From assembly GCA_001574975.1 (NCBI GenBank), contig KQ965865.1:53143-117142 (forward strand): 64,000 nucleotides of DNA, read 5' to 3'. This stretch comes from Gonapodya prolifera JEL478. Taxonomy: Eukaryota > Monoblepharomycota > Monoblepharidomycetes > Monoblepharidales > Gonapodyaceae. Under the pieces are notes generated by a model. That model saw only the letters and a list, made by a program, of their open reading frames with translations, was not told where the DNA came from and searched no databases. Positions 1 through 27,871 of the stretch are shown one piece after another. Each line of letters begins with the position of its first letter. Position 1 is the stretch's first letter. The translations under genes and the position numbers were made by a program.

Positions 1-3000
1 TCGGTCGTGCTGCAGCTCTTTGCCGTCAATCCACTCCAATTTCTTCTTCTCCGGCGAACAAGGGTGTATGGAGAAGCAGCTGCTTTGTTTTTTGACTACA
101 GGGTACGTAGTTAACGGATCATGCATTACTCGCGATCGGAAGTATAATCGATCTGCTCCATAAGTGGACACGATGGCGGACTTCGAAGATGACCGACGAG
201 GAAAGCCAACCAATATGGGACGCATTGCATGAGAAGAATGCTAAAAGATTGTACAAGGTGATGACAGAGCTTGAAGGGATTTGGATCAAAATGGGGCAAT
301 ATGTTTCGACGAGGTGAGACATTGGTCACGAGCTGCTCTTTCCGACCAACACCATCAATGGCCGAATGAATTTCCCCAGAGTTGATATTCTTCCAGAGGC
401 CTACATCACGGAATTGAAGCCGTTGCAGGACGCCCTCCCCCCTCGCGACATTGCCGACATTCGCCAAACCATCCTCGAGGAGCTCGGTTCCCCTTCAGAG
501 GAGCTCTTTCGTAAGCACGCTAACTGCACTTTATATCTCCACGCTATAACGCGTGCTGGTTGTTTGTAGATGAGTTCAACGAGAAGCCTCTGGCGACTGC
601 TTCGATCGCGCAAGTGCATAAAGCTGTTTTACGCAGTACGGGGGAAAACATTGTTGTGAAAGTACAGCACCGGAATATTGAGCGAAGTATGCGCGAATCA
701 GTTCAGTTGTGGTGCCAACCTCCTCATCACTCTTCCCACGCCTTCTAGTTGTAATGCAAGACTTGGAGAACATGCGCGAGGTCGTCCGAATTGTCGCGGA
801 GTTTGAGAAGGACTTTGACTTTCGTGTGATATACGACGAGTGGGCGAGCGAGTTGCCCAAAGAACTGGACTTTGTGAACGAAGCGAGCAACATGGAAACC
901 GTGCAACGAAACTTTGAGAAGTTTACCAGCGATTTGGATGCGCGGGATCCTAAGCTCGCAGAAGAGTTCGAGGTCTCATCACCGCAACTGAAATTCGACT
1001 GTCGTCTGCCTAAAATTGTCCAAAGCGTTCCTCGGTCCAAGAAAGTGCTTTGTCTCGAGTTTGTTGACGGGTGGAAGTTGAACGATGTCAAAGCACTGAA
1101 ATCCAACGGTGTGGACTGCCCGAAAATCGCTGGAGAGATATGTCGCTCGTACGCACAGCAAATATTCCATGCCGGTGTGTACAATGGGTGAGTACCGTGA
1201 CTTCCACTTCATTGTGGTTCACACTCATTGCGGCTTTCTCATCCAGAGACCCACACGGTGGCAATTTCGTTGGTACTACAACCTTATTCGCGGCACGTAC
1301 ACTTGCTGACCCAAGATTCATTCCACAGCTTGTCGAGAAGAGCAGCCACCGTCTTATCCTCCTCGACTTTGGATTGACAAAGCATCTCACCACGACGGAA
1401 AGGCGCGGCCTATCAAAAATGCTTGTTGCAGGTGAGTCGACCATTTAGTTTTCAGAACTTTATCAGGATCTTGAGGATAGCATCGTTCGGACAGCCGCGG
1501 ACCTCGACTATATTGCGCTTCTGAGTTCATTGGAGGAGGTAAATGGTAGTCCCTCTCGCGTCGTGGACATCTATGATTTACGTGGGCATTTTAGATTGGT
1601 CTGAAACTGAATATCGATGGTAAGTGTGTGTCTTTTCACCCAGAAGCGCTTGTCTTTACTTGCTCTTCCCCTCTCATCTGTAGAGCCGGAAGCGAGTATG
1701 AACGTGGTCCGCTTTTTGTTCCGGCGGTCCAAAAGTAAGGAAGAGAACCAGAAAGAAATGGAAGGTACGCCGAGGAGAAGTGCTGTTTCCCGTATTGAAC
1801 TTCATCACACGCACGTTGCAAACTCTTATGCAAAAAGAAATGAACAAAAAGTACGAAGAAGATCAGGCGAGCCGACCAACAATGCGCAAAGTCGTGGAAG
1901 CGTTTCCAGGATGCTTGATTCTCTTTGGAAGGGTGCTGAATTTGCTGAGGGGTTTGTCGAGCAGTTTGGGCGACACCAAATCTTACTTGGAGGTAGATGA
2001 TTCACATCCTTTCCTTTCACGTGCACACGGATACTGATTGGAATTGAGTAGATCATGACCCCTTTTGCGCGACAATCTCTCCTCGATGATTTTCTCCGGG
2101 AGAGCGCCGTTCCCCTCAGCGTTTCCAACGTGTCGATGAACGCAGCTGAAACTAAGCTGCGTGGCGTCATCAAAACTCTGGCGGACCAGAAACTTGTCCT
2201 GGGCATGCAAGTGTTTGTATCCAGAGGCGCGGAGACGGTCGCGAACGTCTCCGAAGGGTTCATGGGTGTGAGTTGTCGTCGTGTCAAACGGTGCGAACGA
2301 TGAAGCAAAACCGCACTGTGTTGAAGCCGCTTGACCCGCGAAAATACTCGGAAGATACATTGACCAACGTCTTCTCGGTGACGAAACCGTTTGTGGCAGG
2401 TATGTGTTTCTCGGCAAGGTGAATGGGTACGTTGTGCATGTATGACACTCCTCTACATAAACCACCAGTCGTTCTGCATCTCTTGGTTCAAGACGGCGTC
2501 TTGAAATACGATGACACCGTATCCTCTGTTTGGCCCTCGTTTGCGCAGAAGGGCAAGGAAAACATCACCGTCGCACAAGCCCTCAGCCATCTCGCAGGAC
2601 TGCAAGACGCGGGCTCGGACGAGGTGAGCCCTGCCAGCCCAGAAAAGCCGGACGGGGACTAACGCAAGCGTGGCCGCTCCGCAGATGATGGGGGACTTGT
2701 TCACCCTGACGGATTGGAGCAAGGTGATGGGCTTTTTGGAGCGTGCGGCGCCAAAGAGTGTCGGGACGTTTGGGTACCATTATTTGGTGTACGGGCACCT
2801 TATCGGTGGGATCCTCGAGAAGGTGTGTTTTGGGTGTTGGTTTTGTGGCGGCTTGGTTGGGAGAGTGAGCGTACATGACATGTCAACAGTCGTCGGGTCG
2901 TGCGTGCATGGATCTTGTGAACGAACGAGTCTTCCATCCCCTTGGGATTCAGAACGACGGGTTTATTGGAATTTCACCAAAGGCAAGTCACGTCATAGTT

Positions 3001-4135
3001 TCCACGAGGATTCATGCTCGGCGGTGTAACTGCTGATAAACAGGTGGAATCCCGGCTTGCATCTGTCGTGATGGACGTCAAGGGACTGATAAAGTCGTTC
3101 GGCGCTAACTTCAGCTCGATCGAGGATCTCGTCTCCAAGGAAGGTGTTACCCTCAAGGAGGAGCCGCACGTCGTCACCAATGGCGACGCGAATGGCGTCA
3201 CGAATGGAAATGGCCACACCGCACCAACCCCATCCCGTCCCGCTGCCACGACCGCCCCGGCGCGTAACCTCCGCGAGCGACTTGCGTCGTCCCCAGGCGC
3301 GAGCCAGGCGCTCGTGCTGTCGAACCCGTCCATCTTCAACCACCTGCGCATTCGCCGTGCGGTGATCCCGGCTGCGAACGGGCACTTCACGGCGAACGCG
3401 CTGGCAAAGTTTTATTCGTCGGTCGGGGCGGCGTTTGCGGTTGAGGGAGGAGACAAGGGCAAGGACAGGGGCAACGTGCTCGGAATCAAGAGCAAGACGG
3501 CCGAGTCGATGATGTGGGGGTTCGATTTCGCGGAGCAGTGGGACGATAAGGGAAAGGCCAAGTCGGCGCGGAGGTTGGTCACGGAGGAGGAATTGAGCGT
3601 CTTGAGAGCGTCGGCGGGAGTCGTTCCCGCGATGGGTGGTGGATGTGAGTGTAGTGTGCAATTTGACTCTGCGCCGTGTGAAGATTCGTTAAGTGACGTG
3701 TTGGTCCTGTGTTGTGTGGTGTAGTCTTCCGGTACCATTTCGTGAAGAGGTTGCCTGCGCCCAAGAGCAGACCGGACGGCGCGTACTATGTCGCGGAGCT
3801 GATTGTCGGGCTTGGACATTCGGGGTTCGGAGGATCCGTGGCCATGGCTCTGCCGAGCGAGAACGTGTCGTTTGCGATCGTGCTTAATAAGCTGAATTTG
3901 CAAGGCAAGGCTACTCAGACGGTGATGGACTGTATTGCTGAGGTAGAGGTTGAAACGTCCTTGTTTCTTCGAGTTTAGATACATGATTCCCCCCCACCCC
4001 CACCCCCTGCAGATTCTGGACGTTGGGCACCCCATCCAATATGGCGGAGTCGAGGCTGGTCGCACTGCGGCTGTAAGTGCGCGGGCGGAGGTGTTTGCGG
4101 ACATGGAGGTGCGAATGGAGGAGTCACTGGAATGA
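1..4135 (+). CDS. ABC1/ADCK-family kinase fused to serine beta-lactamase-like domain (5' partial)
   Basis: Multi-exon gene entering from the left edge, so the N-terminus is missing. The first half is an ABC1 (AarF/COQ8/ADCK) kinase-like domain. It shows the KxGQ motif (KMGQYVSTR, about 279-315), the Ala/Ser loop ATASIAQVH (about 597-623), [10 protein letters not shown] (about 865-895), DPHGGN (about 1248) and LLDFG (about 1360-1375). Exons then continue in frame into a beta-lactamase/EstA-type domain: SVTK nucleophile motif (SxxK, about 2377), FGYHYLVYG (about 2768, in place of YxN) and GHSGFGG (about 3810, HxG-like). Introns of about 60 nt interrupt it; the stop is at 4133-4135. ABC1 kinases act on lipid or coenzyme Q metabolism in mitochondria or plastids, and SxxK domains hydrolyse esters or amides. 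Similar fusions are known in some eukaryotes. The substrate is unknown. A Gly/Asn/Pro-rich linker (about 3160-3260) lies inside the lactamase part. Confidence 0.85.
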
Positions 4136-4471: not shown

Positions 4472-7400
4472 ATGAAACTCGAGCGCCAAATCAAGCTGCG
4501 GTGCGTTTATCTCGCCACCCACGCTGTCCCACCTAGCTCACCTGGTCGCCGCAAACTTCCAGCCTCGTCCTGCCTGTCGTCCTGGGCATGCTCGTGCTGG
4601 GTGGGAATGGAGGTCATTTTTTCTGTACCAGAATCCTCCTTACCATTTGCATCAACCGCAGGCGCTGCCACAGTCGCGCTGATTTACACGCAGTCCTCGT
4701 CGTGGATTGACGAACTGGCATCCATCATCGATGACTTACAAGTGCGTCAACCCAAGAGATCTTGTCCTCTCCTGTATTCCAACACCTCTAATGTTTGAAT
4801 TCATGTCGAACCAACATTCATGAATCCTCAACGCACCAGATCGCAGCCGTCCAGTCCCGTGCATACGGCAAGGCCTCATTCGTCCAGTCGTTTGTCTCTT
4901 CTTTCGTCCTCGACGTGCGAGTGCTTGCTCTCTATGCCGCCGCGGCCACTCGGGGGACGCTTGGGACAATTGCGCGGTACGTTCGATTCCCACAATCCTC
5001 CTCACCGTGTACTCACCTCGATCTCTCCCCCCGCGCTCTTCCCAACCTTGGCGTAACACGGTTCCATGCCTCTCGTAACCCGCCCGCCCGACTCCCGCCA
5101 CCACAGACCCATCCCGTCATTCTTCCAGCTCCCACTGCTCGACTCGCCTTCCGTCGCCACACCCATGCCGCCCGAGACGTCACGCCCTCTGTACTCGTCG
5201 TACTGGTCCGTCAACATATCTACCTCGGCTGACCTTGCCGCTGCGGCCAGCTCGAGCATGAACAGCTCCGTTCTTGATATGGCGTTCAGACCGTTGTTCC
5301 TTGACAAGGTGAGTCGGACATTGAGTGTAAACCTTGGAGTGGAGAAATGGGGAAAGAGGGGATGTGCGTTGATGGTGTGGGGAAGAGGATGCAGGAATTC
5401 CACGGAGATGACTATGAAATGAGATGGCCCCTGAAAGGGCATCAAGTTCCACGCATTACATGTCCTCTGAGACCAGAGAGACTGAAAGCTCGACCGTCTC
5501 CTCTCTTCCTTATCCCACCATAAACCCTCACCTCCCCACAGCCCGGCACGAACCAACTCTACACCGGCTTCTCGGACACCGGCATGCGGATATTTCCTTA
5601 CAAATTCGACTCGTCCCTCAACGCCTCCTTCCGCACCCAACGGTTCTGCGACGCGCCCGATCTGGACCCGTCCGTACGGGGTAAAGTTGGGTTCATCCCG
5701 GCGTGTCGCCGGTGGTACAGATCTGCTATTGATGCGGTGCGGAACGCGTCCAGCGCGAGCGCGAGCACGGGCAGTAGCGTCGATGGTATCGGGCCGTGGG
5801 TTGTTGTGTCGCCGTATGTGGACGCGACTACGGGGAAAGTGATGTGAGTACGCACCGTTCTGGGTCGTTGGAGTACCGGCACCACAAGATCCTGACAATC
5901 GCCGTTTCGGGGAATGGGCACTCGTTTGAAGCATCTCGGCATCGCAGGCATTCCTCGACGCGCGCGGAGCCGTCGCCGGCGTGGCAGCGCTGGACGCCAA
6001 CATGGACTTGTTCCTGGCGACGTTTTCGCAGAGCAGCAAGGTGGAGTGTGCGCTCCGTGTTGGGTCTAGTGCACCCAGTGGTCTCATTTGTGCGCTTCTA
6101 TAACGCGGGCCACGGGATTGACAGATCTTGGAAAATGGGTACTTGCTGGTTATGGACACGACGGGGAATCTTATCGTCTAGTGAGTGCTCCCACAAGTCC
6201 ACCCAAACACCCTAGCCACCCTCACACCCAAAAATACCCACCCAACCACCCAGCGACCAGGCCCAAGCCCAATCCAAAAACATCTCCATCTACTCCTCCA
6301 TCACCAACATCCTCTCCACCGACTTCCCAGGGGACGCGCCTTCCGCTGCGGCCTTCCTCGCGCTGGCGCAGCAATCGGCCACTGCAGGGACCTCCACGAC
6401 GTTCCTCCGCGGGGGCCGCCTGTGGCGCCTCGCGGCGACGGGGGTCCCGGACACGTCGTACCTCGTTGTCGCCCTCGTGCCCATATCCGACCTACGTGCC
6501 CTGTCGGACTCCATGCGGGCAAAGACTGCCACATTTGGCGCGGCGGCGACGGGGGTAACTGCGGTGCTGCTGGTGGTCGCAGCATTCGTAGCGAATAGGG
6601 TCAGCACCTGGATTGCAGAAAGGGTGCTGAAGCCCGTCAAAAATCTTACAGAGTTTGTCGAGCGCGTCACGTCGGGAAATTTGGATCAAGAGCCTATTGT
6701 GAGTGCGGTGTGGTGCGGTTGTATGCGGTCCATTGGTAACGATGACCGTCCTGCTCCCTAATTCCCACCCCTTGACAACCAGAACTATGGGCCCGTCAAT
6801 ACAGAGATCGACGCCATCGGTAAGAACTTCCGCGAGCTTTTGGTGGCAATGCGGTTTGGCAACACGGCGTACTACGCGGGTGATCTCAACAAGGCCCTTG
6901 ACAGCGTGAGTGCTTTGTGTGTGGGGCCTTTTATCGGGAAGTGTGCTGAGTCGCTCTCTCGCGGGCTCCGCATGCCAGTATCTGGCCGCGGAGAGGGTCA
7001 TGACGGAATTCAATTCGGAGAGAGGAAAAGGAGTCTGTTGGAACAACCTTGGCAACGTGTACTCCCAGATGGGCAGGTAGGTTCGCTACTCTCCAGGAAT
7101 ACCTGTAAAGGTTTGTTCGGGAAGTTTTGAAGATCAACGCTCCATAACTGTTAGGTTTGATCTAGCCCTAAACCATTACAATAAGGCCATTGACAGCGGT
7201 AGGTGTTGCGTTTATGATGGCCTCTACCGCAACTTAAAAACCCTGCCTCCCAGCGGAACGCCTTCTTGCCGCCGAACAAGACCTCACCAAGCGAAACGAT
7301 CTGCACAGCACGCTAGCAGAGCGACTCATGAACAAGGGCGTACTTTTCAAGGTCACAAACAAGCCACCCGAGCAGTCTGTGGCGTTATTCGAGCGGGCGA

Positions 7401-8666
7401 TAGAGCTACACCGGCATAACGACAGCGTTGATGGAATTGCGCAGGTGTCGGGGAACTTGGGCCAGCTGTACCTGGAGCGCAAAACCTTGCCCAAGGCTGA
7501 GGAGTGCATTAAGAACGCGTATACCGAAATCAAGGACAGGCAGAGGCCTGTGGCGTTGCAATACGCGGCAATGAACATGTAAGTGACTCGTGTGACCTGT
7601 GGCGTGGGAAGAACGGACTTTGACTGTTGAGAACAGGGGTCTTCTTGCTGACGCTCAAGGCCTTCAGGAAGAAGCACTAGCGTGGTTCTTATGTGAGCAA
7701 CCCGAAATGCGGTAATTTGCTTTCTGTTTGCCCTAATTCTCGAAATCAAAACCATGTTTGAAAGATGTGCTCCAGCGCTTTGAAGTCTCTGTCCATTACG
7801 TGCAGAAAAAGTGCACACAGGAAGTGATTCGGCTCTGTCAGGATCCCGCGATCAACAAGCCCGACATAGCTCAAGCGGTGTATAAAGTTGGCCGATCACT
7901 CTTTCCTGACCTTGCCATACTCCCTGGGGCCGCTGGTGCACCAGGACCAAGCGGCTCAAGCCAAGGAACCACTCACATTGATTCACAAGCTAATGTACGT
8001 GTTCATTTATTAACTTGCATCGCTGCCAAAAATCACGGTCTTCGTTTTCGGATGCAGGCACAGATGCGCATGCTCATGGCGGGGAGCAAGGACCTTGCAT
8101 TCACCTTGGATGTTTCTGGCTCCATGAGCGGCACGTTCATTCATCAATGCCGCACCTCTATCAACGAAATCATTGACAGTCACTGCGGACAAAATGATCT
8201 CGTGGCGCTTCTTGTGTTCGACAACACAGTAAGGCAAGTGTTCGACTGGACGTTTGCAACCGACGGACAGAAAGCAGTCATGCGCAATCTCGTTAACAAC
8301 GACACCCGAATTGGAGGAAGCACTGCATTCTGGGATGCACTTGTGGCCACCGCTCGGCGCATGGCGAAAGTTAAAGATCACAAAGGCCGCTCGCTCTGGA
8401 TCTGCACCCTCACTGACGGAGGCGACAACGCGTCAAGGAGCACGTCTACCAGTGTCATCGCGGAACTCAAAAAGTTACCTCAGGTGGGCCTCATCGCCAT
8501 CACGGTCGGAGTACTCAGCAACGAGGCGGAGATTCGCAGAGTGTGCGAGGCCAGCCGTAATCGGGGTCTTTTCATTCGCGCCGAAGCGTCTGGGCAGGGC
8601 ATCCAGACCGCTTTTAGGGCCGCGATTCAACACATGGAGGATTATGCAGTCCAGCAGTTCACCTGA
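4472..8666 (+). CDS. Cache-HAMP-TPR-VWA transmembrane sensor protein
   Basis: Multi-exon gene, ATG at 4472, stop at 8664-8666. Exon 1 and the next exon give a short basic N-terminus and a first membrane helix (about 4557-4700). An extracellular region follows with Cache-like features, including PACRRWYRSA (about 5698-5728) resembling the RxWY signature of Cache sensors. A second membrane helix (about 6520-6610) leads into a HAMP-like helix pair (VLKPVKNLTEF...EIDAIGKNFREL). TPR-type helical repeats follow (CWNNLGNVYSQMG at about 7040-7075; GNLGQLYLERK at about 7450-7480). The C-terminal exon (about 8057-8666) is a von Willebrand A domain with MIDAS DVSGSMSG (about 8108), the threonine region GGSTAFWDA and TDGGDN. 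HAMP domains normally relay ligand signals across membranes; here the output is TPR plus VWA, both protein-binding modules. No kinase, cyclase or methyl-accepting domain is visible. Ligand and partners are unknown. Confidence 0.8.
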
Positions 8667-10051: not shown

Positions 10052-11956
10052 TTAGGCGGCTGAGCCTGGCGTACCACTCTCTGGCGATTCGGCAGCTTCA
10101 TAAGACGGGGGTGGGAGGTCGGGCACCTTGTCTACAACGTTCTTCGAGTGGACATTGCTGTTCCAGTCTGGCATCTCACTGTTCTTGTAAAATGGGTTCG
10201 CCTTCCCTGCGGGAGCTTTCGTGGTCGCGCGCAGCGTCTCGATCATGGAGTAGAACCTCTGCGATAGCTCTTCGGTTTCGTCAATACGTGCAAGGGCGAT
10301 GCCCTTGCCCCCTCCATTGGTGGGGTCGACACCAGCAAACAGGTCGTTTTCGCCTATGTTGCGGCTGATCTTCTCGGATTCGTGACTGAGACGGACGAGA
10401 GGCTGTGCGGCAGAGTTTGCGAGTATGGCCACGGAGGTCTTGAGAGGAAGAAGGAAGGAGCGGAGCCGGTGTGTAAGGTCGAGCGATGACATTGTGTGGA
10501 ACGACGTCATGGCACTTACTGAGACAATGATCAGAACGGCCAAGAATATTCCCACTGAGATGCCGCTGTATGTTGCCAAGATGTTGTTCATCCGCGCTTG
10601 AACGTTTTGGACGGGAATGTTGACGAGAGCCATTGGGAATGCTGAAACAGACACGTATGAGGGACTCAACTTCCCGTTGGTAATGTTTAGCACTTTGTAG
10701 ACCTGAAGTCATTGAGCCATGAGCTCCTGCAAGAACGCGAACTCACGCAAGAACAACTGCCACTTACAACAAGATAGTTGTCGCCAGAACTTGGGTCCTT
10801 GTACACTTCCGACGAGGCAACGCCCGAGCTTGCACTTCTCATCCGATCCCAAAGATCGGCATTGATGGTTGGATTGGTTGCATTTCTGTACGTGAATGGT
10901 ACGTCCGCGGTCCACGTCTTCAAGTTCCAAGACGGATTTGATAACGCAACACCATTAGTCTGATAAAGCGACATGGAACCTCCCTTAGCCGCTTGCGACT
11001 CTAGGGTCGCTTTCAAAGTGTCGATGACGACATCGACGCCAGCGACTCCAATTATGGCTCCGGATGACGTGTTCCGGATCAAGGACGACACGGTAATCTC
11101 CCATCCCTGACCAAAGGCGTCGCGATATGGGTCCGTCACGACATACGCGGAGGTTGGATTGGCTTGTGCATCTTTGTACCAAGGTCGTACTCGCGGGTCA
11201 TATGCCGTCTGGTTTCTGCTGTCGCCCGTGCCTGGATACCGACGGTAAACACCCCCCTCATCGAATCCGACATATAAAATGGCCACATTGGGGTTCAATT
11301 GGTACGAGGACCGAAAAATGGGATCCATGTGGGCGGTCGCGTCGACAATGGCCTGTTGAGCGGGGGTGAGACCGGGCGGCTCACTTCCGATGACGTTGGG
11401 TACGAGATAGGTTGAGTGCTTGAGTGAGATTGTCCAACCCGAAAATCGGGACCCTGCTGGGGGGACCACGGATTCTGCCGCCTGAAACAAAATGCTAGAC
11501 TGATAGCGAAGCGGTGTGCACTTGACCTCGCGAGCCCCACCTGAATACCAGCGGGACTATCAAAATATGAAGGAACAGTCGCGAAAGGTTGATCGCTTCT
11601 GAATGTAACACCAGCCGCCTGACTGATCAACAATGAAATGCTGCGCGCTATCTTATTGAGGTCATTTTCGAACAGAGAGGCCGCGTCGTTCACGCTTGCA
11701 GGATAAAGAAGGGTCGAAATGGTCAGACCAGCGTTGTTCGAAATGGATACCCTGCCTACTTTGCTGTGAGGGCCTGCGTGAGCTGTGTGCTGAGCGCATC
11801 GTTCGTTGTGCTCCCAATGTTGCCGATGATTGCGCCGAGAAATCCGAGCGAAAGAGCTTCCACGAGGATTAGGAAACCGAGGGAAACCGCCAGGCCCGCA
11901 ATTATGAATTGTGTACGCAGACTGTAGCCAGTCCATCGACTTTTGCTGGATGCCAT
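10052..11956 (-). CDS. Cache-HAMP transmembrane receptor with C-terminal PPxY motif
   Basis: Start at 11956, stop at 10052-10054. A cytoplasmic start (MASSKSRWTG) is followed by a strong membrane helix (about 11780-11900). The extracellular part carries the hallmark of double-Cache sensors, YDPRVRPWYKDA (about 11170-11205), then VAGVDVVID (about 11010-11035). A second membrane helix follows (GIFLAVLIIVSVSAM, about 10510-10560), then a HAMP-like segment ending ETEELSQRFYSMIETL (about 10240-10290). The tail ends PPPSYEAAE, containing a PPxY (WW/Nedd4-type) motif. Introns are visible at about 11489-11541 and 10710-10775. The join near 11762 needs a one-base shift that no canonical intron explains, so either a splice was missed or there is a frameshift. 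No enzymatic output domain is visible. It is convergent with the Cache-HAMP-TPR-VWA gene, suggesting a local receptor pair. Confidence 0.8.
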
Positions 11957-14115: not shown

Positions 14116-14593
14116 GCACATTGAAATGTTTGTATTGACAACTGTACAAATGGCAGAAGTATTTTCTCTGCAAGACCCGTGACCTTCTGTAAACTGTTTC
14201 GCCAATTCCCGCCCGATGTGCCACTTTTGCCAAAACGCGCGTGTGTAGGGATGAATGGCAATCTTCCCACCGGAGGCAAATCAGGGGTTGGATGCAAGGT
14301 AACAAACTAGCTTGGGTGACAAACCTAACCTTACCTTTCTCTGATTCTACACTGTTCATGCCATGATCGCATCAGGAATCGAGTCGCAAGCCACGGAACG
14401 AAGACATCGCCATCTTGAGAGGGCAAACGTGCTTGATTTGGGCTCCAGAGAGAGTCGAGGTAAGTCGAGGTAGGTTTGTCTCAAGACCCTTGAAGAGAAA
14501 AGTCACCGAGACTCCCTCACAGTCTTCACTCTGGCGAGACATACATAAAACCAGGGATCGTCTCATCCTACCTCGCGTACGACCATACCTCCG
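14116..14593. promoter_or_regulatory. Spacer upstream of pectinesterase copy 2
   Basis: About 480 bases between tandem copies; it must hold the terminator of copy 1 and the promoter of copy 2. A short direct repeat, GGTAAGTCGAGG-like, occurs at about 14458-14471. No gene seen. Confidence 0.35.
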
Positions 14594-16067
14594 ATGAGGA
14601 CTCTTTCTGCAACCACACATCTCGTCAGCGCACTCGCACTCGCACTCGCGATGGTCGTGGCCGCATTGCCGGCTAATGTGCCCTCCTCCGCAATCGTTGT
14701 TGCCAAGGACGGCTCAGGCAAGTTCACGACCTTGCAAGCGGCAGTCAATTCCGTGAAACAGCCCAACACTGCAGAGGTTGTGATATACGTCAAGGTAATG
14801 CATAAAAGCATCACACTGCTTATTTCCGCCTGTACTAAGCGAAACGTGCGGCGTCCACTTCAGGCTGGCACATACACCGAACAAGTCTCCATCAAGTCCG
14901 ACTACATCACCATCGTGGGCGACGGGTACGCCAGCACCAAGATCACCAATAAGCTGGATGCCAAGACATGGCAGTCGCAGAACCCGGGCGCAAGTGGTGC
15001 AAGTGCCGAGGCGGGTACGGTCAAAGTGCAGGGAGCCTTTTTCAAAGCTTTTGATATCACGTTTGGTGGGTAACAATTGCGTATGACACGAGTTCCATCC
15101 TTCAGCACCCTCTCACCCACCTTTCTTACCGCTCGCCCAAAATTTGTACAACATTATCCGCATATATAGAGAACACTGCAACTGCAAGTCAGGTACGTGA
15201 AGCGTTATTCGACTCGTCCGATGTCACTGCAACTCACGAGTGCAACGCACTTCAGGCGCCTGCATTCTACATCCTTGGCGACAACATGTACATCGAGAAC
15301 GTACAGTTCCTGGGATGGCAAGACACGCTCCTGAGTGAGTATGAGCGAGCCCAAACAGTGCGTGAAGTATTTCTCATGTCAGTCGCGATTGACAAATAGG
15401 TTACCAGGGGACAAACCAGTGGTTCTACAACTGCTACATTCGCGGTGATGTCGGTGAGTGGATCCTGAATGTTCTTTTACATCACGTCAAACTAAAATAA
15501 ACTCGTGCAGATTTCATTTGGGGCTATGGCCGCGCCATCTTCCAAAACTCCGAATTCCACGTCGGCAAACGCCCCAGTGGATCGACAGGAAATGGTTACA
15601 TAATTGCCAACGGCAACGACGGGTCCTCGCACAAGACCTCGTGGTTCCTTATGCTCGACTCTTCTATTTCCGGTATGTTCAACCCGTCCGCCAATTTATA
15701 CTCTTCCCTTCTCACGCTACATTGCCGCACAGCTGACTCCGGCATGTCGGCATGGCTAGGACGTCCATGGGGGTCCGCTGCAGCTGGAACGTGGCAAGGA
15801 GTGTACATGCCTTCGTCGGTGCCTGCCGCGGGCTACCAGCCAATGTCATCCGGTACTCCTTCAGGTACCCAATACTACGAGGTCATTGGAACCAACACCG
15901 GACCAGGATCAAGCACGGGGAATCGCGTCAAATGGGTCCACACTACGAACACGAAGTCGTCGTTCTCGAGCTTCTTCCCCAGTGCTCCATCGTGGCTCAC
16001 CTCACCGAAAAAGTACGGCGCTAGTGTGAGCAAGGGAAGCGGGTACTTCTCTCGATGCTGCCAGTAG
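14594..16067 (+). CDS. Pectin methylesterase (secreted, CE8), intact copy 2
   Basis: Demethylesterifies homogalacturonan in plant cell walls, releasing methanol; expected to be secreted. Seven exons join in frame: 14594-14794, 14864-15065, 15170-15192, 15256-15334, 15400-15453, 15511-15672 and 15733-16067, giving 351 aa. The N-terminus is a signal peptide (MRTLSATTHLVSALALALAM). CE8 motifs in order: AGTYTEQV (GxYxE), QAPAFYI, GWQDTLL with the acid/base Asp, GDVDFIWG with the nucleophile Asp, and LGRPWG with the binding Arg. The C-terminus ends SRCCQ. Splice junctions are canonical and phases agree throughout. It is the only undamaged member of the tandem trio, implying selection on this copy alone. 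Confidence 0.93.
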
Positions 16068-16484
16068 TATTGTATACATGTGTATCCATTTTTGTTTTGT
16101 GAAAAATATATATGTAGTACTGAAATAATGGGGGAACACCACAACCGTACCATCGGGAGCAACTTTGGTCGGCCAATAAGTAAAATCGAACTCGCGCGAT
16201 TCCATGTTGGGTGTGTGTGCAACATCAACACTTTATTTAACTTTCTTCAACACGCCACCGGTCATTAATCAGGATGAACGTGCCTTGGACACATGGTCAA
16301 CGAAAATGACGCCAAGCCGCCGAGAAAAGCTGATGTCGGACATTGTCAGGTCACATGCCTGGCCCGTCACTCATCTCGGGAGAGCATCCTTGCTGGTGCA
16401 CCCTTCACTTTCTCGCCGAAGGTCAATTCTATGTATTCCTACGTAGAGTCAGCAGACAAAGGCGTTGATACCCCACCGCTGCCA
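16068..16484. promoter_or_regulatory. Spacer upstream of pectinesterase copy 3
   Basis: About 420 bases between copies 2 and 3. An open frame continues upstream of the copy 3 ATG, but the signal peptide begins at 16485. No other gene is visible. Confidence 0.35.
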
Positions 16485-17949
16485 ATGCGAGTTACAAGTC
16501 GCTTCTCCTTCGTGCTTGGTGTCATCGCTGTTGGGTTGTCACTGGTCTGCGCGCAACCTGCAAACCTACCATCCTCCGCCATCGTCGTTGCCAAGGATGG
16601 CTCTGGAAAGTTCTCGAGTTTGCAAGCGGCGGTCAACTCCGTGAAACAGCCAAATACTGCAGAGGTTGAAATTTACATCAAGGTACGCACGGGATGGCAT
16701 GACTCAATGGCTCCTGCCCACAATAGCTTCCACCCGCCGTTCACTTCAGGCTGGCACTTACATCGAGCAAGTCTCCATCAAATCTGACTTCATCACCATC
16801 GTGGGCGACGGGTACGCGAACACCCGGATCACAACTTGGATGCCAATACGTGGCAGTGGCGGAACCCGGGTTCAAGCGGCGCAAGTGCCGAGGCGGGAAC
16901 GGTGAAAGTGCAAGGAAACTTTTTCAAGGCATTTGATGTCACGTTCGGTGAGTGTTGCGCATGACACAGCCTCCATTTCTCAACACCCCGCTCACCCACC
17001 TTTCTTACTGCTCGACCCAAATATGTGCAACACTATCCGCATATAGAGATAACACTGCAACTGCGAGCCAGGTACGTGAACCCTTTTCTGGCCTCTCCCA
17101 TGACACTGGAACTCATGAGCGCATGTACTCCAGGCGCCTGCATTCTACATCCTTGGCGACATGTACGTAGAAAATGTGCAGTTTCTGGGATGGCAAGATA
17201 CCTTGCTGAGTGAGTTGTTGTCTCACGCTTCACTGTTGGGATGTCCTGCTCATGATTCCGGGACCCCTGCATAGGTTGGCAGGGCACCAATCAGTGGTTC
17301 TTCAACTGCTACATACGCGGCGACATCAGTGAGCCGTCGTCAACTCTCTGTAACAATTCCGGCGCTCTCACTGTCGTCGCAATTACAATATGACAGACTT
17401 CATTTGGGGTTACGGGCGAGCAACCTTTCAAAAGTCTGAGTTCCACGTCGGGAGACGTCCTAGCGGATCTCTAGGAATGGGCTACATCATTGCGAACGGG
17501 AACAACGGATCCTCGAACAGAACTTCCTGGTTCCTCATGCTCGACTCTTCCATTTCTGGTATGTTCGACCTGTCCACAAATTTTGACCGTTCCCTTCTCA
17601 CACAGCATTCTCGCACAGCTGACTCCGGCATGTTGTCCCTCCTCGGCCGCCCAAGGAGATCCGCTGCAGCTGGACGTGGCAAGGAGTGTACATGCCCTCG
17701 TTGCTGTCTGCCGCCGGCTGCCAGACAATGGCGGGTACTCCTTCAAACACCCAGTACTACGAAGTCCTCGGAACCAACACAGGACCGGGTTCGAGCACGG
17801 GCAATCGTGTCAAATGGGTTCACACTACCAACACAAAGTCGTCGTTCTCGAGCTTCTTCCCAAACGCTCCGTCGTGGCTCACCTCGCCCAAAAAGTACGG
17901 CGCCAGTGTGAACAGGGGAAGCTGCTACTTCTCTCGATGCTGCCAGTAA
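16485..17949 (+). pseudogene. Pectin methylesterase copy 3, disabled
   Basis: Third tandem CE8 copy. It keeps a signal peptide (MRVTSRFSFVLGVIAVGLSL), AGTYIEQV, GWQDTLL, DFIWGYG and a C-terminal block ending SRCCQ. Alignment with copy 2 shows a 4-base loss at about 16831 inside the ITNKLDAK segment, which throws the rest of exon 2 out of frame. It also shows a one-codon loss in the LGDNMY segment, Trp to Arg in LGRPW (read as LGRPRR, about 17655), and a single-base loss at about 17673 where GGAACGTGGC became GGACGTGGC. Either frameshift alone should abolish the enzyme. The lesions differ from those of copy 1, so the two copies decayed independently. Confidence 0.78.
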
Positions 17950-18103
17950 ATCCATTTTTATTATTTGAGCAAATAATTGATATTTTTACTTGTAATAGAT
18001 GTGTGAAAAAGTTGGCACCTCAACCTGATTGCGATCCCCAACCCAATCGTGAACGCAGGAACGCGATCGCAGATCATCCACACGAGATACTGCATTCCAG
18101 TCT

Positions 18104-19800
18104 ATGAGCACTTCCTCGCTCACTCAAGATCCACGAATACACCCCGAGACACCCCTCATCGGCACCGCTCAACGATCGCAAATGTCTGCGGCCGACCGCA
18201 CACTCCAATCATCGTACGCGCATCAGATCCCGATTCCCTACTCAGACAATCCGATCTACGAGGGCATGACGAACGCTTTGGGAGGTGATTGTGATCTGCG
18301 GCTCGCAGCTCTGCGATCATGTGAATCACAACGGGCTTCCCTCCCCCGGTGATCTTTGCACAATAGACGGGTGTGGCTTCCTCGGTGAGAAAGCCATCGT
18401 CTTCATACCCCCGAGCTTCAAGCACAGCAAAATCTCCATACTGTTGATGGTTGAGCATAGGTGCCATTCCGTGTCTCTTCTGCTTCCCCAATCCGTTCAA
18501 AACAGTTCGTGAGTTCTCCTCTTTGTCTTGCCCCCCTCGCTGCTGTGAACTGTCATTTATTGTAGTACAGGGAAGCGTCGGTCTTATTCAGCGGTAAGGA
18601 TATCAAACTATTCACATGTCTTTTCGAAGTGGACTGATAACGGTTCAAAGGTTTGGAAAGTACTACCGGGCCGTGGACCCAGGACTATACTGTAAGAACG
18701 CCGTAATTCCTTGTCTCCTCAACACCGTCATTCTCATCAATTGACACAAAAAGACATCAATCCATTCACCGAAAGTCTCACCGCTATCGACATCAAAGTT
18801 CAAGTCGAAGATATCCCGCGACAAGTTGTGATGACAAAGGACAACGTGACCGTCACGATAGACAGCGTGCTGTATTGGAAAGTGGTTGATCCGTACGCTG
18901 CGGCGTTTCTGGGTGAGAACAACTAAGTGGTGCCACGAATGAAGTCGAGATGCTGACCTGTCCTTTCTCAAGTTGCCAACGTCCGGGGGGCGCTGGTCGA
19001 ACGAACACAAACAACGCTGCGACAAGTTATTGGAGCGCGGACATTACAAGAATGCGTCGAAAATCGGGAGGGTGAGCTTGTATAACTCCCGTTGCATTCC
19101 ATGCCCGTTCAACAACCACACTGGGCTTCAGTCCTCGCGCACCAGATCCAAGACATCATCGAGGTCCCCGCAAAGGAGATGGGCGCCGACGTGACGGCGA
19201 TGCTGCTCAAGGACCTTCAGTTCTCCGCGGAACTGCAGGACTCGGTATGTTGGCGACGCCTCGTTCCTGATGGTGTGTGGCGTGGTGCCCTGACTGTTGT
19301 TGTGTAGCTCTCGGCAGCCGCCAAGCAGCAGCGGATAGGAGAGTCGAAGATCATCGCAGCAAAGGCCGAAGTTCAGGCAGCGAAACTGAGTGAGTGCCAT
19401 TCGGTGTACCTTTGACGCTGCCTCGAGCGAGATCTCACGTCATCCCCCCATGTCTAGTGCGAGAGGCAGCGGATATTCTGAATCATGTGAGCGTCATGAG
19501 CCTTTGCGACTTCTTTTTTTATCGCCCGGTGTTCTAACCCCCGACCTCCGCGCCCGCCAAAGCCCGCCGCGATGCAGATCCGGTACCTTGAGACGCTCGC
19601 CGGGATGGCCAAGAGCGGGAACACCAAAGGTTCGTGGTGGAATAACGGATGTCAGCCCTTCACAAGATTGACAAAGTCGTCGGAATGTTTTGTCAACAGT
19701 CATCTTCATGCCCCCCGAAACTCCCAATGCGATCGGGTACAAGGGAATTGAGAAGATGGCGATCACGGATGTGATTTCGGGACACGGGGCGAGCGTGTGA
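18104..19800 (+). CDS. Stomatin-like SPFH/band 7 membrane protein
   Basis: Multi-exon gene, ATG at 18104, stop at 19798-19800. A hydrophilic N-terminus (exon 1, 18104-18284) leads to AIPCLFCFPNPFKTV (18461-18508), a Cys-containing membrane-associating segment typical of stomatins. The SPFH core follows: GLIQRFGKYYRAVDPGLY, then DIKVQVEDIPRQVVMTKDNV and VDSVLYWKV (about 18785-18890), and AKQQRIGESKIIAAKAEVQAA (about 19320-19385). The C-terminal oligomerisation segment is QIRYLETLAGMAKSGNTK...VIFMP (about 19575-19715). Stomatins form oligomeric membrane scaffolds that organise microdomains and modulate channels. The gene is convergent with the TANGO2 gene, with only about 45 bases between stops. 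Confidence 0.9.
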
Positions 19801-21208: not shown

Positions 21209-23241
<2,033 letters not shown>

Positions 23242-23970: not shown

Positions 23971-26900
23971 TTAAATAACTTTCTGTGTGGGGTGTGTCAA
24001 TAAACAGTTCTGATGAAGGGTATGTTCTGAAAAAAGTCGCGTGAAGCACTGGAAGCAACTGAAGATAACGATTGAGTACACGCGGTGAAGATAGCAAGTA
24101 CCGGAATGCAACAGCAAGTAACCGAAGGGGTATAATAACGTTCCAGCAAGAGGTGAAGCATTCATCACCCAAGGGCGCTCCGAGGGAAAAATCCTCCCTT
24201 CTCCGGCGCGGTCAGGGTCCTGTACACCGCGAAGCCATGATTGGTATGAGACAAGAAGCGCAAAGAGTCCAAATGTCAAGCCAACTACGAACCCAAACAG
24301 CAGCCCGCCCGAGTACCGTCCCAGGATCTTGATCTTGTCTCCTGCATTAAAGGACAGTTCGTCCCTCCTGCTACGTTTGTGGGCCTCCTTTGCCACGACG
24401 GTTTCGATTGGGCGTGGCTGGCGCAAAGTGGGCATTTCGGTTGGCGTGACGGCTCTGGCAAAACACCCAACCAAGTTCGTGAGAAAACGATCGAATTCGA
24501 CTCCTCAAGCCACCCCATAAAAGAAAATTCCCACTCACAAGATTTCCTCCAGCTTCTTGACAATGTCCGCAAACATTGGGCGGTCCTCGACTTCAAAATG
24601 CCAGCACTCATGGATCAACTCCTTTAGTGGTGCGGGCATGGGCACAACCGTATCGTCGCAGCAGGGCCGCAAATCGCCATCAATGATCCGGTTCCACAAT
24701 CGCGCGTCGGGTACGTCACCGAATGGCCGTTCAAGCGTCCAGATCTGTGAAACCACCGATGGCACGTGAGCTCTCAACCCCACACAAACAGCCCCGAAAA
24801 TCACACTTACTTCAAACGCCGTCATCGCAAAAGCGTACACGTCTCCCTCCCGCGAGCTGGTGTGTTCTAGAAGGCGCTCCGGGGGCATCCACCGTGGGGT
24901 ACCCACGCGTTCTGAAGGATCGGCCCCGCGCGGGCGCGCAGCATCTTCAAGCTTGCTGTAGCCAAAGTCGCACACGACGCCAACGCCGTCCTTGCCTACG
25001 AGAACGTTGGCGGCCTTGAGGTCCGCGTGTACGAGGCCGACGGTTTCGAGGTATGCCATCCCGCGGGCAATATCGAGGAGCTGTCGGTGGGGTACACGGG
25101 GGAGGAGGAAAGGGGTTGGTCGCGGGAATGTCATAATTTCCAAGTCAATCTATTTTGTTGCCAAATTCTCGCCCCCATCTTCCCCGCACGTACCATTTTG
25201 ACCCTCTGATACGTCGTAGTATCCACCGTCATCAAGTACTCCGCGGCGGTGCCGTACTCCATGAAAGGTGAGACCAGGAAGGGAAACGTGGTCGTCAAGC
25301 AAGCCCCGAGGAGGGGTAGAACGTTGTCGTGCTTTAGCCGCGTCCAGATCTCAATTTCAGACGCAAAGGCCTTATAGTGTGGGAGGCGTCGTCAGTCCGT
25401 CAATGAAAAGCTGACACTACACCCCCGATCCCAAACCTCAGCCTCACCGTGTACAAATCTCTACCCATATCTCCCCTGAAAACGCGCTTCACCGCCACGG
25501 TCCTGTCGAGCCACACGCCCCGGAACACCTCGCCGTAGCCTCCCTTCCCGATCAGCTTGAGCAGCTTGACGTCCTCCTCGTGCAGCCAGGGGGTGTCGAT
25601 CGGGTGGTGCGTCGATGAGAGCATGGAGGCGCTTGTAGGGTGGTTGGGTGATGGCGGTGTTACGGGGGGTGGGGGGAGGGAGGTTATGGAGACGCCGAGA
25701 AGGCAGCGAGTTGAGAACCACGCACAGCACACCCTGCAACTCCTCCACGATCCCATCAAACGTGACCCCGCTGGGCGTCTTGAGCGCGTTCTTGCACCTG
25801 CCCATCAACTCGACGAGCGCGCGGGGGGCCTGCGGGTCCTCGTCCATCATGGCCAGGGTCCCCTTCTCCTTCCATATTCGAAAGCAGACCCTCGAGAACG
25901 CCACGACGTCGCCTTCGGCAGAGTCGTACAGGACCATCTGCCGTGGGTACGATAGGCACTGCTCGAGGAACTTGTCCTCGTCCTTAGGGACGAACGCGGC
26001 GGTGGCTGCCGTGAGTGTACGTGACATGGTCCCGGAGGTGTACCCGAACGAGGAGATCTGGGCGTGGCCCTGGTCGTCGATGACGACAACGTCTTGGTGG
26101 ACGTTGCAGTGGATGACACCGTTGCGGTGCAGGTGGCGGATGCCTTTGGCGATGTCGAGCATCTGCGGGTAGGGTAGGAGTCTCAGTATTAGCGTGACGA
26201 CACTTGGAAGCGCCGTCTCCGGCATTTGCAACGTGGACGTCGACACTCAGCGACATTGACCACATCATAGTCCCCAATTCCATCCCGTCACACCACCCCC
26301 ACCAAAAACGCACCAGCCTTATCCTCTCTCTCCCCGCCGGTCTAAACCTTGCAATATACTCTCTCAAGTTGCCATTCCGCATGAGTGGAGAGACGATGTA
26401 GGGCTGAAACGCGTCAAAGCATATGCCGTACAGGCGGATGACGTTTGGGTGCGGCGGGAGGAGGGACCATGTAAGCGTTTCGTTGGCGAAGGCCTGGGTG
26501 TGGTGAGATGTGGTATGAGTTTGGGGAAACGGGAAGTGAGACGGGTTGAGAAGAGGAGTGAGATGAATGGAGGCAAGGGTATCACGAGTGGAGGAACGGG
26601 GAAGGAGGAACGAGACCCACCCTGATAGCCCAGGTATCCTCGAGTGCCAAGACCTTGATCCCGACCTCGACGTCGCGCTGCCACACGCCGCGAAACACCT
26701 GGCTGTAGCCTCCCGACCCGATATAGTCCCCAAACTCAACGTCAAAGTGCTTGATGTTCCCCTGGACGCCGTCGAACAAGTATGGCCACTTTTTCCCGCC
26801 GGCAACCCACCCCGTGAGCACGGACTCGGCCGTGCGGGGCAGGTATCCGGCCTTGTGGAGTTGCGGCGTCGTGGGCGAGGGGGGGTCTGCGAGCGTGTGC

Positions 26901-27277
26901 ATGGAGGAAGTGGACGCGTCGTGCGTGGTGATGCTGGAGTGGGATAGGTCGGAGGGCAGCGGGTCTTGTAGGTAGGATGATGTGGGAGTGGTGGGGTTGA
27001 TGGGTGGTAGTTGCGCGCCCTGTTTGCAGTCGATTTGAGACCGTGGGCCGTCGGCAGCACGGTTTTCACGCGCAGGAAGGTGCAACACATGATATGCTGG
27101 CGCATCTTGTCCCTGCTGCGTTCCCGCGTCCGATTCGGTGACCGAGGAGTCGACCAACGTCGCTGTGCTTGACGCGGTGCTGGCGAGCGATTGCAGCGAC
27201 GGTTTGGGCGGCGGTTGTGCTGCGTCTGCATCTGTGGGCGTGGGCGTGGGATCACCGCCGAGGATTCGGTGCCACAT
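23971..27277 (-). CDS. Tandem pseudokinase-kinase (TKL type) with probable C-terminal SH3
   Basis: Start at 27277 (MWHRILGGDP); the first about 160 residues are Ser/Thr/Pro-rich. Kinase-like domain 1 has a glycine loop (IGSGGYSQVFRG) and a lysine (VGIKVL). Its catalytic loop reads HCNVHQDVVVI in place of HRDxKxxN, and SSFG replaces DFG (about 26030-26110), so it should be a pseudokinase. Domain 2 (about 25640-24537) has GKGGYGEVFRG, VAVKRV, HADLKAANVL, CDFGYS and WMPPERL, and looks active. A donor at 24538 (ATCTT|GTGAGT) and an acceptor at 24455 join in phase to ETVVAKEAHKRSRRDELSF.NAGDKIKIL and, after another in-phase intron, GRIFPSERPWV, which resembles an SH3 domain. The 3' end is uncertain (about 23971-24180). 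A 25640-25760 intron links the two kinase domains; a two-gene model is not excluded. Substrates are unknown. Confidence 0.75.
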
Positions 27278-27871
27278 GGTGACAAGAGTTTGGATTGAAA
27301 GGACCCTGGTACGGTCGGTGGCCACAGCAGTGAGGTGAATGTGCGACCTCACCCGGCCAAGTACTCAAATATCTGCGAGAAATTAAATTCATTACCGAAA
27401 AAAATGCAACGGGGCTCTTGAATGCAAGTGAAGACTATCGTCCCCCCGACATGCGCCATTCTTTCGCCACAGCTGCCCACACTCTCGAGACACACGTCGA
27501 CATTCCGTTGGAAAATAGGGTTTAATGGACCGGCTTTGGGGGCAGGGACCGACTGAAGACCACAGGCAACCGCCCGCCCCGATCATTCACACGCGCCACG
27601 TCCGGAAACTGATCCGTAAATCTGAATGCAATGAGAGCTTTGCCTTAAGAGGAGAGTGGCTGTGGTGTAGTACATACCTCCTCTGCGTTGCCTGCTACCT
27701 GAAAAAAGAATTGTTCGGAAACAGTTGACCAAGCCCAAGTTGCTTTCCCAAGTCTCGCTTGGAACTAGTCTGGGATGTCGTCGATAACTCTCCTCATAAA
27801 TCAATTTTATTGGGGCACTATTAAACATTCATCAAGTAACTTCAGCTTCACATGCAACCCCACTATCGTGT
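27278..27871. other. Intergenic region, nothing recognised
   Basis: About 600 bases upstream of the tandem-kinase gene. Open frames are short and have no motif or splice continuity. The promoter of the kinase gene presumably lies in its left part. Confidence 0.35.

What the first reader, a model, noticed from the sequence alone, without database searches (positions are those of the whole stretch)
4472..8666. Cache-HAMP receptor with TPR and VWA output
An extracellular Cache-like sensor and HAMP relay, familiar from bacterial chemoreceptors and histidine kinases, is joined to cytoplasmic TPR repeats and a VWA domain with complete MIDAS (DVSGSMSG, TDGGDN). No enzymatic output is present, so signalling would act through regulated, metal-dependent protein binding. 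I know of no described eukaryotic system with this order.
Basis: partly seen in the sequence, partly recalled or inferred. Interest (0 to 1): 0.85.

Follow-up and report, generated by a model that had tools for sequence, protein, structure and literature searches.

The report
Fungal-type receptor with adhesion-domain output
A gene in what looks like a water-living fungus joins a bacterial-style outside sensor to a non-enzymatic, probably metal-binding protein-binding arm inside the cell, a combination for which my limited searches found no description.

Summary
A 16-exon gene at exactly 4472-8666 (+) with GT-AG introns encodes one 960-residue protein: TM1, a dCache_1 sensor, TM2, a HAMP relay leading directly into TPR repeats, then a VWA domain with MIDAS residues. 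Pfam places TPR and VWA above cut-off. HAMP is just below cut-off in the whole protein and above it when its segment is scanned alone. dCache_1 is significant (E 3e-9) but below the curated cut-off. Exon 10 holds the HAMP end and TPR start, and the last intron is stop-free and in frame, so the halves are one gene. No enzymatic domain was found. A convergent neighbour (11956-10052, -) is a second dCache_1 membrane protein with all six residues of the published amino-acid-binding motif; the subject has five of six (Tyr to Phe at one). Likeliest reading: a metabolite receptor, perhaps for amino acids, that works by exposing a binding or scaffold surface, not by catalysis. Ligand, partner and MIDAS regulation are inferred. 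No match covering both TPR and VWA appeared in 299 Pseudomonadota genomes or among the best places of 11 plasmid records. Eukaryotic proteomes could not be searched, so its spread and true novelty remain open.

The parts
4472..8666 (+). Whole coding gene, 16 exons, 960 aa. Exons: 4472-4500, 4563-4600, 4662-4741, 4840-4976, 5107-5308, 5542-5843, 5932-6040, 6125-6180, 6254-6698, 6783-6905, 6979-7076, 7155-7198, 7254-7578, 7637-7692, 7765-7994, 8058-8666
   Evidence: Splice-site and frame check; stop and GC3 analysis
4564..4684 (+). TM1, aa 11-30 (interrupted by an intron), preceded by the basic stretch MKLERQIKLR
   Evidence: Hydropathy up to 2.56 over 19 residues; coordinates
5270..6500 (+). 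Extracellular dCache_1-type sensor, approximately aa 150-400, interrupted by introns; Pfam match covers aa 244-390
   Evidence: dCache_1 E 3.2e-9, 37.1 bits, cut-off 45; PDB matches to bacterial sensor domains, best 7k5n E 1.6e-5; coordinates
5692..5718 (+). FIPACRRWY, aa 213-221: counterpart of the YxxxxRxWY amino-acid-binding motif with Phe in place of the first Tyr
   Evidence: Alignment with the neighbour; motif as given in passages of PMC10104139 and PMC9901441; coordinates
6531..6590 (+). TM2, aa 411-430
   Evidence: Hydropathy up to 2.25 over 19 residues; coordinates
6609..6842 (+). HAMP, aa 437-486, across exons 9 and 10
   Evidence: Pfam E 1.5e-4 in the whole protein, E 6.3e-6 and over the cut-off as a segment, 0 of 9 shuffles
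6837..7790 (+). TPR region, aa about 485-690, about five repeats counted by eye
   Evidence: TPR_12 E 5.7e-16, first match at aa 489-556; best natural PDB relative LGN/GPSM2 6hc2, E 6.9e-13
8091..8585 (+). VWA domain, aa 770-934, within exon 16
   Evidence: PF00092 E 6.8e-12 in the whole protein, 2.7e-13 as exon 16 alone; PDB match alpha2delta-1 E 3.6e-4
8109..8132 (+). MIDAS DxSxS: DVSGSMSG, D776, S778, S780
   Evidence: Read from sequence; aligns with DVSGSVSG of alpha2delta-1
8313..8330 (+). MIDAS Thr: GGSTAF, T847
   Evidence: Read from sequence; aligns with the Thr of alpha2delta-1
8412..8429 (+). MIDAS Asp: TDGGDN, D878
   Evidence: Read from sequence; aligns with TDGGEE of alpha2delta-1
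10052..11956 (-). Convergent neighbour: TM, dCache_1 with all six motif residues (YDPRVRPWY, DPY, GVD), second TM, short tail without output domain. Exons 11481-10768 and 10702-10052 are clear; the start region is unresolved
   Evidence: dCache_1 E 2.3e-10, 40.9 bits (cut-off 45), and MCP-like_PDC_1 over cut-off; PDB CACHD1 2.4e-11, PctC 3.7e-10, PctA 4.4e-9; similarity to the subject E 1e-7, 44 of 152 identical

Best explanation
A single-chain membrane receptor of a eukaryote, probably a zoosporic fungus. Shown by sequence: two TM helices flank a dCache_1-type sensor, a HAMP follows TM2, its profile match ends 3 residues before the TPR match begins, and a VWA with all MIDAS residues closes the chain; no enzyme domain was found. 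Inferred: a small metabolite, perhaps an amino acid, binds outside; a HAMP dimer passes the change along its second helix, which probably continues into the first TPR helix; the TPR solenoid moves relative to the VWA; the VWA then binds, or lets go of, an acidic partner through a divalent metal. The output would be recruitment or scaffolding rather than catalysis.
For: One frame through 16 exons. Domain matches in the stated order; HAMP over cut-off as a segment with 0 of 9 shuffles matching. Positive N-terminus, two hydrophobic peaks, and 5 N-glycosylation sequons in the 379-residue outside part against 1.9 expected from shuffles (P 0.03), versus 4 against 3.5 in the 528-residue inside part. 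HAMP ends at 486 and TPR_12 begins at 489. Five of six residues of the amino-acid motif present and aligned with a neighbour that has all six. MIDAS residues align with alpha2delta-1, whose MIDAS contacts an Asp of its channel (passage of PMC9901441). No kinase, cyclase, phosphodiesterase or methyl-accepting domain in Pfam at E 10 or NCBIfam at E 1, apart from partial matches of NCBIfam histidine-kinase models over their TPR or HAMP parts.
Against: No transcript, ligand, partner or localisation data. dCache_1 is below the Pfam cut-off and its first half does not align. Tyr to Phe at one motif position and an insert of about 16 residues between the WY and PY parts; the authors of PMC10104139 report that a single mismatch in the related amine motif abolished or strongly reduced binding (abstract passage). 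The single-sequence model of the VWA is of low confidence (mean pLDDT 51.3), so MIDAS geometry is not shown. No homologue with the same order was found, so conservation of the architecture is untested.
Confidence: 0.45

Rival explanations
1. Same protein, but the TPR array is the signalling surface: ligand binding changes receptor clustering and TPR recruits partners in the manner of LGN/Pins, while the VWA is a constitutive tether or structural cap.
For: The TPR region has the strongest profile score of the protein, and LGN/GPSM2 is its best natural PDB relative. HAMP leads directly into TPR.
Against: All MIDAS residues are kept in the VWA, which a passive cap would not need. LGN-type resemblance may only reflect the TPR class. 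Partners unknown.
Confidence: 0.25
2. A sensor without a regulated output: a nutrient-sensing scaffold or sink, or a degenerate receptor in a lineage with several Cache proteins, like the convergent neighbour, which has no recognised output domain.
For: The neighbour ends in a short tail with no Pfam domain at E 0.1 or better in its last exon (one match at E 0.1). The subject deviates at one motif position.
Against: The subject keeps an open frame through 16 exons, biased third positions and intact MIDAS residues, which argues for selection.
Confidence: 0.15
3. The gene model fuses two neighbouring genes, a Cache-HAMP membrane protein and a TPR-VWA protein.
For: No transcript evidence is held; splice sites were placed by eye.
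Against: Exon 10 carries both the HAMP end and the TPR start, and intron 15 is a stop-free multiple of three between TPR and VWA.
Confidence: 0.04
4. The architecture is common in zoosporic fungi or other protists and already annotated in proteome databases, though not discussed in print.
For: The only genomes available here were prokaryotic and viral; no eukaryotic proteome was searched. A 2016 survey predates most zoosporic genomes.
Against: Nothing in the full-text searches describes it, but the library lacks most subscription papers.
Confidence: 0.5

Closest known systems
Bacterial dCache_1 chemoreceptors such as PctA/PctC (Cache-TM-HAMP-MCP signalling domain)
   Same: TM1, dCache_1 outside, TM2, HAMP inside; five of six residues of the amino-acid motif
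   Different: No methyl-accepting domain; TPR and VWA instead; intron-rich eukaryotic gene
Transmembrane sensor histidine kinases with Cache and HAMP, the only Cache context stated for fungi in PMC4822843 (section read)
   Same: Sensor-TM-HAMP front; NCBIfam kinase models touch the HAMP and TPR parts
   Different: No HisKA, HATPase or receiver domain in Pfam at E 10
Animal alpha2delta subunits and CACHD1
   Same: Combine dCache_1 and VWA; alpha2delta-1 is the best PDB match of the VWA (E 3.6e-4; 13 of 15 listed sequences are alpha2delta-1), and CACHD1 the best PDB match of the neighbour's dCache_1
   Different: There the VWA is extracellular and inserted into the dCache_1 domain (passage); here it is at the other end of the chain, by topology inside the cell, with HAMP and TPR between
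LGN/Pins (GPSM2) TPR scaffolds
   Same: Closest natural TPR arrays in the PDB (6hc2, E 6.9e-13)
   Different: Soluble, followed by GoLoco motifs (recalled), no membrane sensor or VWA

Membership tests
dCache_1 sensor domain | Profile match to PF02743 at the curated cut-off | tested here: inconclusive
   E 3.2e-9 but 37.1 bits of 45 in the whole protein; 39.0 bits as a segment, profile 107-238 of 240
dCache_1 sensor domain | Placed outside between two TM helices | tested here: met
   Two hydrophobic peaks flank it; sequons enriched outside, 5 against 1.9 expected; topology itself is inferred
Amino-acid sensor subfamily of dCache_1 | Motif Y(x)4RxWY ... Y ... D | tested here: not met
   F213, R218, W220, Y221, Y254, D284: five of six, with Tyr to Phe at the first position. 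The neighbour has six of six. Works-like-an-amino-acid-sensor stays possible
HAMP domain | Profile match next to a TM helix | tested here: met
   22.5 bits (cut-off 25) in the whole protein; 26.9 bits, over the cut-off, as a segment, 0 of 9 shuffles; follows TM2 directly
VWA domain with MIDAS | PF00092 over cut-off and DxSxS, T, D residues | tested here: met
   46.4 bits against 23.8; residues align with alpha2delta-1
VWA domain with MIDAS | Binds a divalent metal and an acidic partner | not testable with these tools
   Low-confidence model only
Methyl-accepting chemoreceptor | MCP signalling domain | tested here: not met
   Absent from Pfam matches at E 10
Sensor histidine kinase | HisKA/HATPase domains | tested here: not met
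   Absent from Pfam matches at E 10; NCBIfam kinase models match only HAMP or TPR parts, far below their cut-offs
alpha2delta/CACHD1 | VWA inserted in an extracellular dCache_1 | tested here: not met
   VWA lies C-terminal, after TM2, HAMP and TPR

The most novel reading that the evidence does not exclude
The first member of a class of eukaryotic transmembrane receptors in which a bacterial-type Cache-HAMP front end drives an integrin-like, metal-dependent binding domain inside the cell through a TPR lever, with no enzyme: an amino-acid or nutrient receptor of zoosporic fungi, perhaps used by swimming spores, in a locus that pairs it with a second Cache membrane protein.
Probability: 0.25. Interest if true: 0.8.

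Novelty: new variant of a known kind. Interest (0 to 1): 0.52.

Why it matters
Cache and HAMP modules are known as input parts for enzymes and chemotaxis signalling domains, and one survey limits fungal Cache to histidine kinases (PMC4822843). A receptor with the same front end but a MIDAS-bearing VWA as output would show that this relay can be wired to regulated binding, in the reverse sense of integrins, and would give a candidate for how flagellate fungal spores sense nutrients. It would also bear on how dCache_1 and VWA came together more than once, given that animal alpha2delta and CACHD1 combine them in a different order.

Tried and rejected
Whole-genome search: no genome is held for the window. 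Relatives: single-protein scans of genome contigs gave 1 confirmed locus from 18 pattern matches, a TPR-only match of 24 residues in a Marinicella bin, and viral contigs gave none from 3. The patterns used were six short peptides, so these scans say little. HAMP-TPR-VWA in 299 Pseudomonadota genomes: 32 genomes with a match, 39 rows, 29 on the TPR side and 10 on the VWA side, none covering both; at most 5 candidates per genome were scored. Plasmids: 11 records, best places 10 on the TPR side and 1 on the VWA side, none with 80% cover; 7 of the 18 places were not shown. Other bacterial phyla, archaea and eukaryotes were not searched for this order.

Alternative splice choice considered: donor AAA|GTGATG with acceptor CATCGCAG|GCATTC also stays in frame but drops VIISASQ, a stretch that aligns with solved Cache domains; I kept the longer form.

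Rejected: a copine-like, bacterial Bat-type or channel-subunit VWA assignment. Those names were recalled leads and no call supports membership. A beta-lactamase reading of 2999-3634 was by eye only and had no Pfam match at E 1.

Full report
What is there. The window is eukaryotic DNA: no prokaryotic genome is held for it and its genes are split by short introns. From ATG 4472 to stop 8666 on the + strand, 16 exons join through 15 GT..AG introns of 55-233 nt into one 960-residue protein. The splice sites were chosen by eye and checked by script. All 16 exons are open in the coding frame, 9 of 16 have stops in both other frames, and third codon positions are GC-rich (0.69, against 0.58 and 0.45 at positions 1 and 2 and 0.53 over the introns).

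Domains. Pfam gives, in order, dCache_1 (aa 244-390, E 3.2e-9, 37.1 bits, cut-off 45), HAMP (437-486, E 1.5e-4, 22.5 bits, cut-off 25), TPR_12 (489-556, E 5.7e-16) and VWA (770-934, E 6.8e-12, 46.4 bits, cut-off 23.8). So two of the four named parts fall short of the curated cut-off on the whole protein. HAMP reaches 26.9 bits when the TM2-HAMP segment is scanned alone, and 0 of 9 shuffled segments match it. The sensor alone still reaches only 39.0 bits and aligns only to the second part of the dCache_1 profile. PDB sequences agree on the sensor: a Cache-type diguanylate cyclase sensor (7k5n, E 1.6e-5) and chemoreceptors, with PctA at E 0.024. Hydrophobic peaks at aa 11-30 and 411-430 frame the sensor, and N-glycosylation sequons are enriched outside (5 against 1.9 expected, P 0.03) but not inside (4 against 3.5). 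No enzymatic output domain appears in Pfam at E 10; NCBIfam lists histidine-kinase and cyclase models only over the HAMP or TPR parts and far below their cut-offs.

One gene, not two. Exon 10 contains the HAMP end (aa 467-486) and the TPR start (to aa 507). Between TPR and VWA, intron 15 is 63 nt, a multiple of three, with no stop if retained, so both halves stay in one frame either way.

Sensor chemistry. The amino-acid motif of dCache_1 domains is given in passages of two papers as YxxxRxWY (the numbering Y121, R126, W128, Y129 shows four residues between Y and R) followed by Y and D (PMC9901441; PMC10104139). The original PNAS paper is not held. The subject has F213, R218, W220, Y221, Y254 and D284: five of six residues, with Phe for the first Tyr and about 16 extra residues between the WY and PY parts. 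The convergent neighbour has all six (YDPRVRPWY, DPY, GVD), aligned by HMMER with PctA, PctC and CACHD1. Subject and neighbour are similar over the sensor (E 1e-7, 44 of 152 identical). For the related amine motif, single mismatches abolished or strongly reduced binding (abstract passage), so amino-acid binding by the subject is a hypothesis only.

Output. The VWA keeps D776, S778, S780, T847 and D878, which line up with alpha2delta-1 (E 3.6e-4; 13 of 15 listed PDB sequences are alpha2delta-1). In alpha2delta-1 the MIDAS contacts an Asp of the channel (passage). The TPR array is closest among natural PDB chains to LGN/GPSM2 (E 6.9e-13; the higher hits are engineered). The HAMP match ends three residues before the TPR match begins, which suggests, without proving, a continuous helix from the relay into the solenoid. 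I take the likeliest mechanism to be ligand binding, HAMP rearrangement in a dimer, movement of TPR against VWA, and metal-dependent binding or release of a partner. Everything after the domain order is inference. A single-sequence model of exon 16 was too poor to use (mean pLDDT 51.3).

Relatives and novelty. No sequence with the same order was found, but the reach was small: 299 Pseudomonadota genomes (32 with a match, 39 rows, none covering both TPR and VWA), plasmids (11 records with a match, none with 80% cover), and two pattern scans that returned one TPR fragment and nothing. Eukaryotic proteomes could not be searched. In print, PMC4822843 (section 11 read) states that Cache in plants and fungi is limited to histidine kinases, in Metazoa mostly to alpha2delta, and in Naegleria to an adenylate cyclase. 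Full-text searches listed no paper that describes Cache or HAMP with TPR and VWA; I judged most of these from listings alone. All modules are known, so I file this as a new variant of a known kind.

Source. Neighbouring matches include pectinesterase, TANGO2, carboxylesterase, tyrosine/serine-threonine kinase, F-box and ABC1 kinase. A zoosporic, plant-degrading fungus such as a chytrid or Gonapodya is my inference; no call names the organism.

Noticed in passing
10052-11956 (-): Convergent second dCache_1 membrane protein with all six amino-acid-motif residues; best PDB match is animal CACHD1. No recognised output domain.
   Followed up: partly
11541-11956 (-): In the neighbour's first exon the reading frame changes by 8 nt after LTQALTAK; an unrecognised intron, assembly slip or damaged gene. 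Described only.
   Followed up: no
682-1191 (+): ABC1 atypical kinase domain (E 1.5e-22). Downstream exons to about 4136 look beta-lactamase-like by eye, but the one tested piece, 2999-3634, has no Pfam match at E 1.
   Followed up: partly
14549-18104 (+): Pectinesterase gene (E 1.6e-11 for 14549-15070) followed by what reads as a tandem second copy; the second-copy piece 17354-17908 had no Pfam match at E 0.001.
   Followed up: partly
24538-27364 (-): Kinase domain (PK_Tyr_Ser-Thr E 1.7e-25 for 24538-25149) with a kinase-like reading frame upstream on the same strand seen by eye, possibly tandem copies.
   Followed up: no
39909-44498 (-): Single open frame of 1530 codons with long helical, coiled-coil-like sequence (by eye).
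   Followed up: no
22700-22850: Long proline/glycine repeat tract read in several frames, a simple-sequence repeat near a carboxylesterase gene.
   Followed up: no
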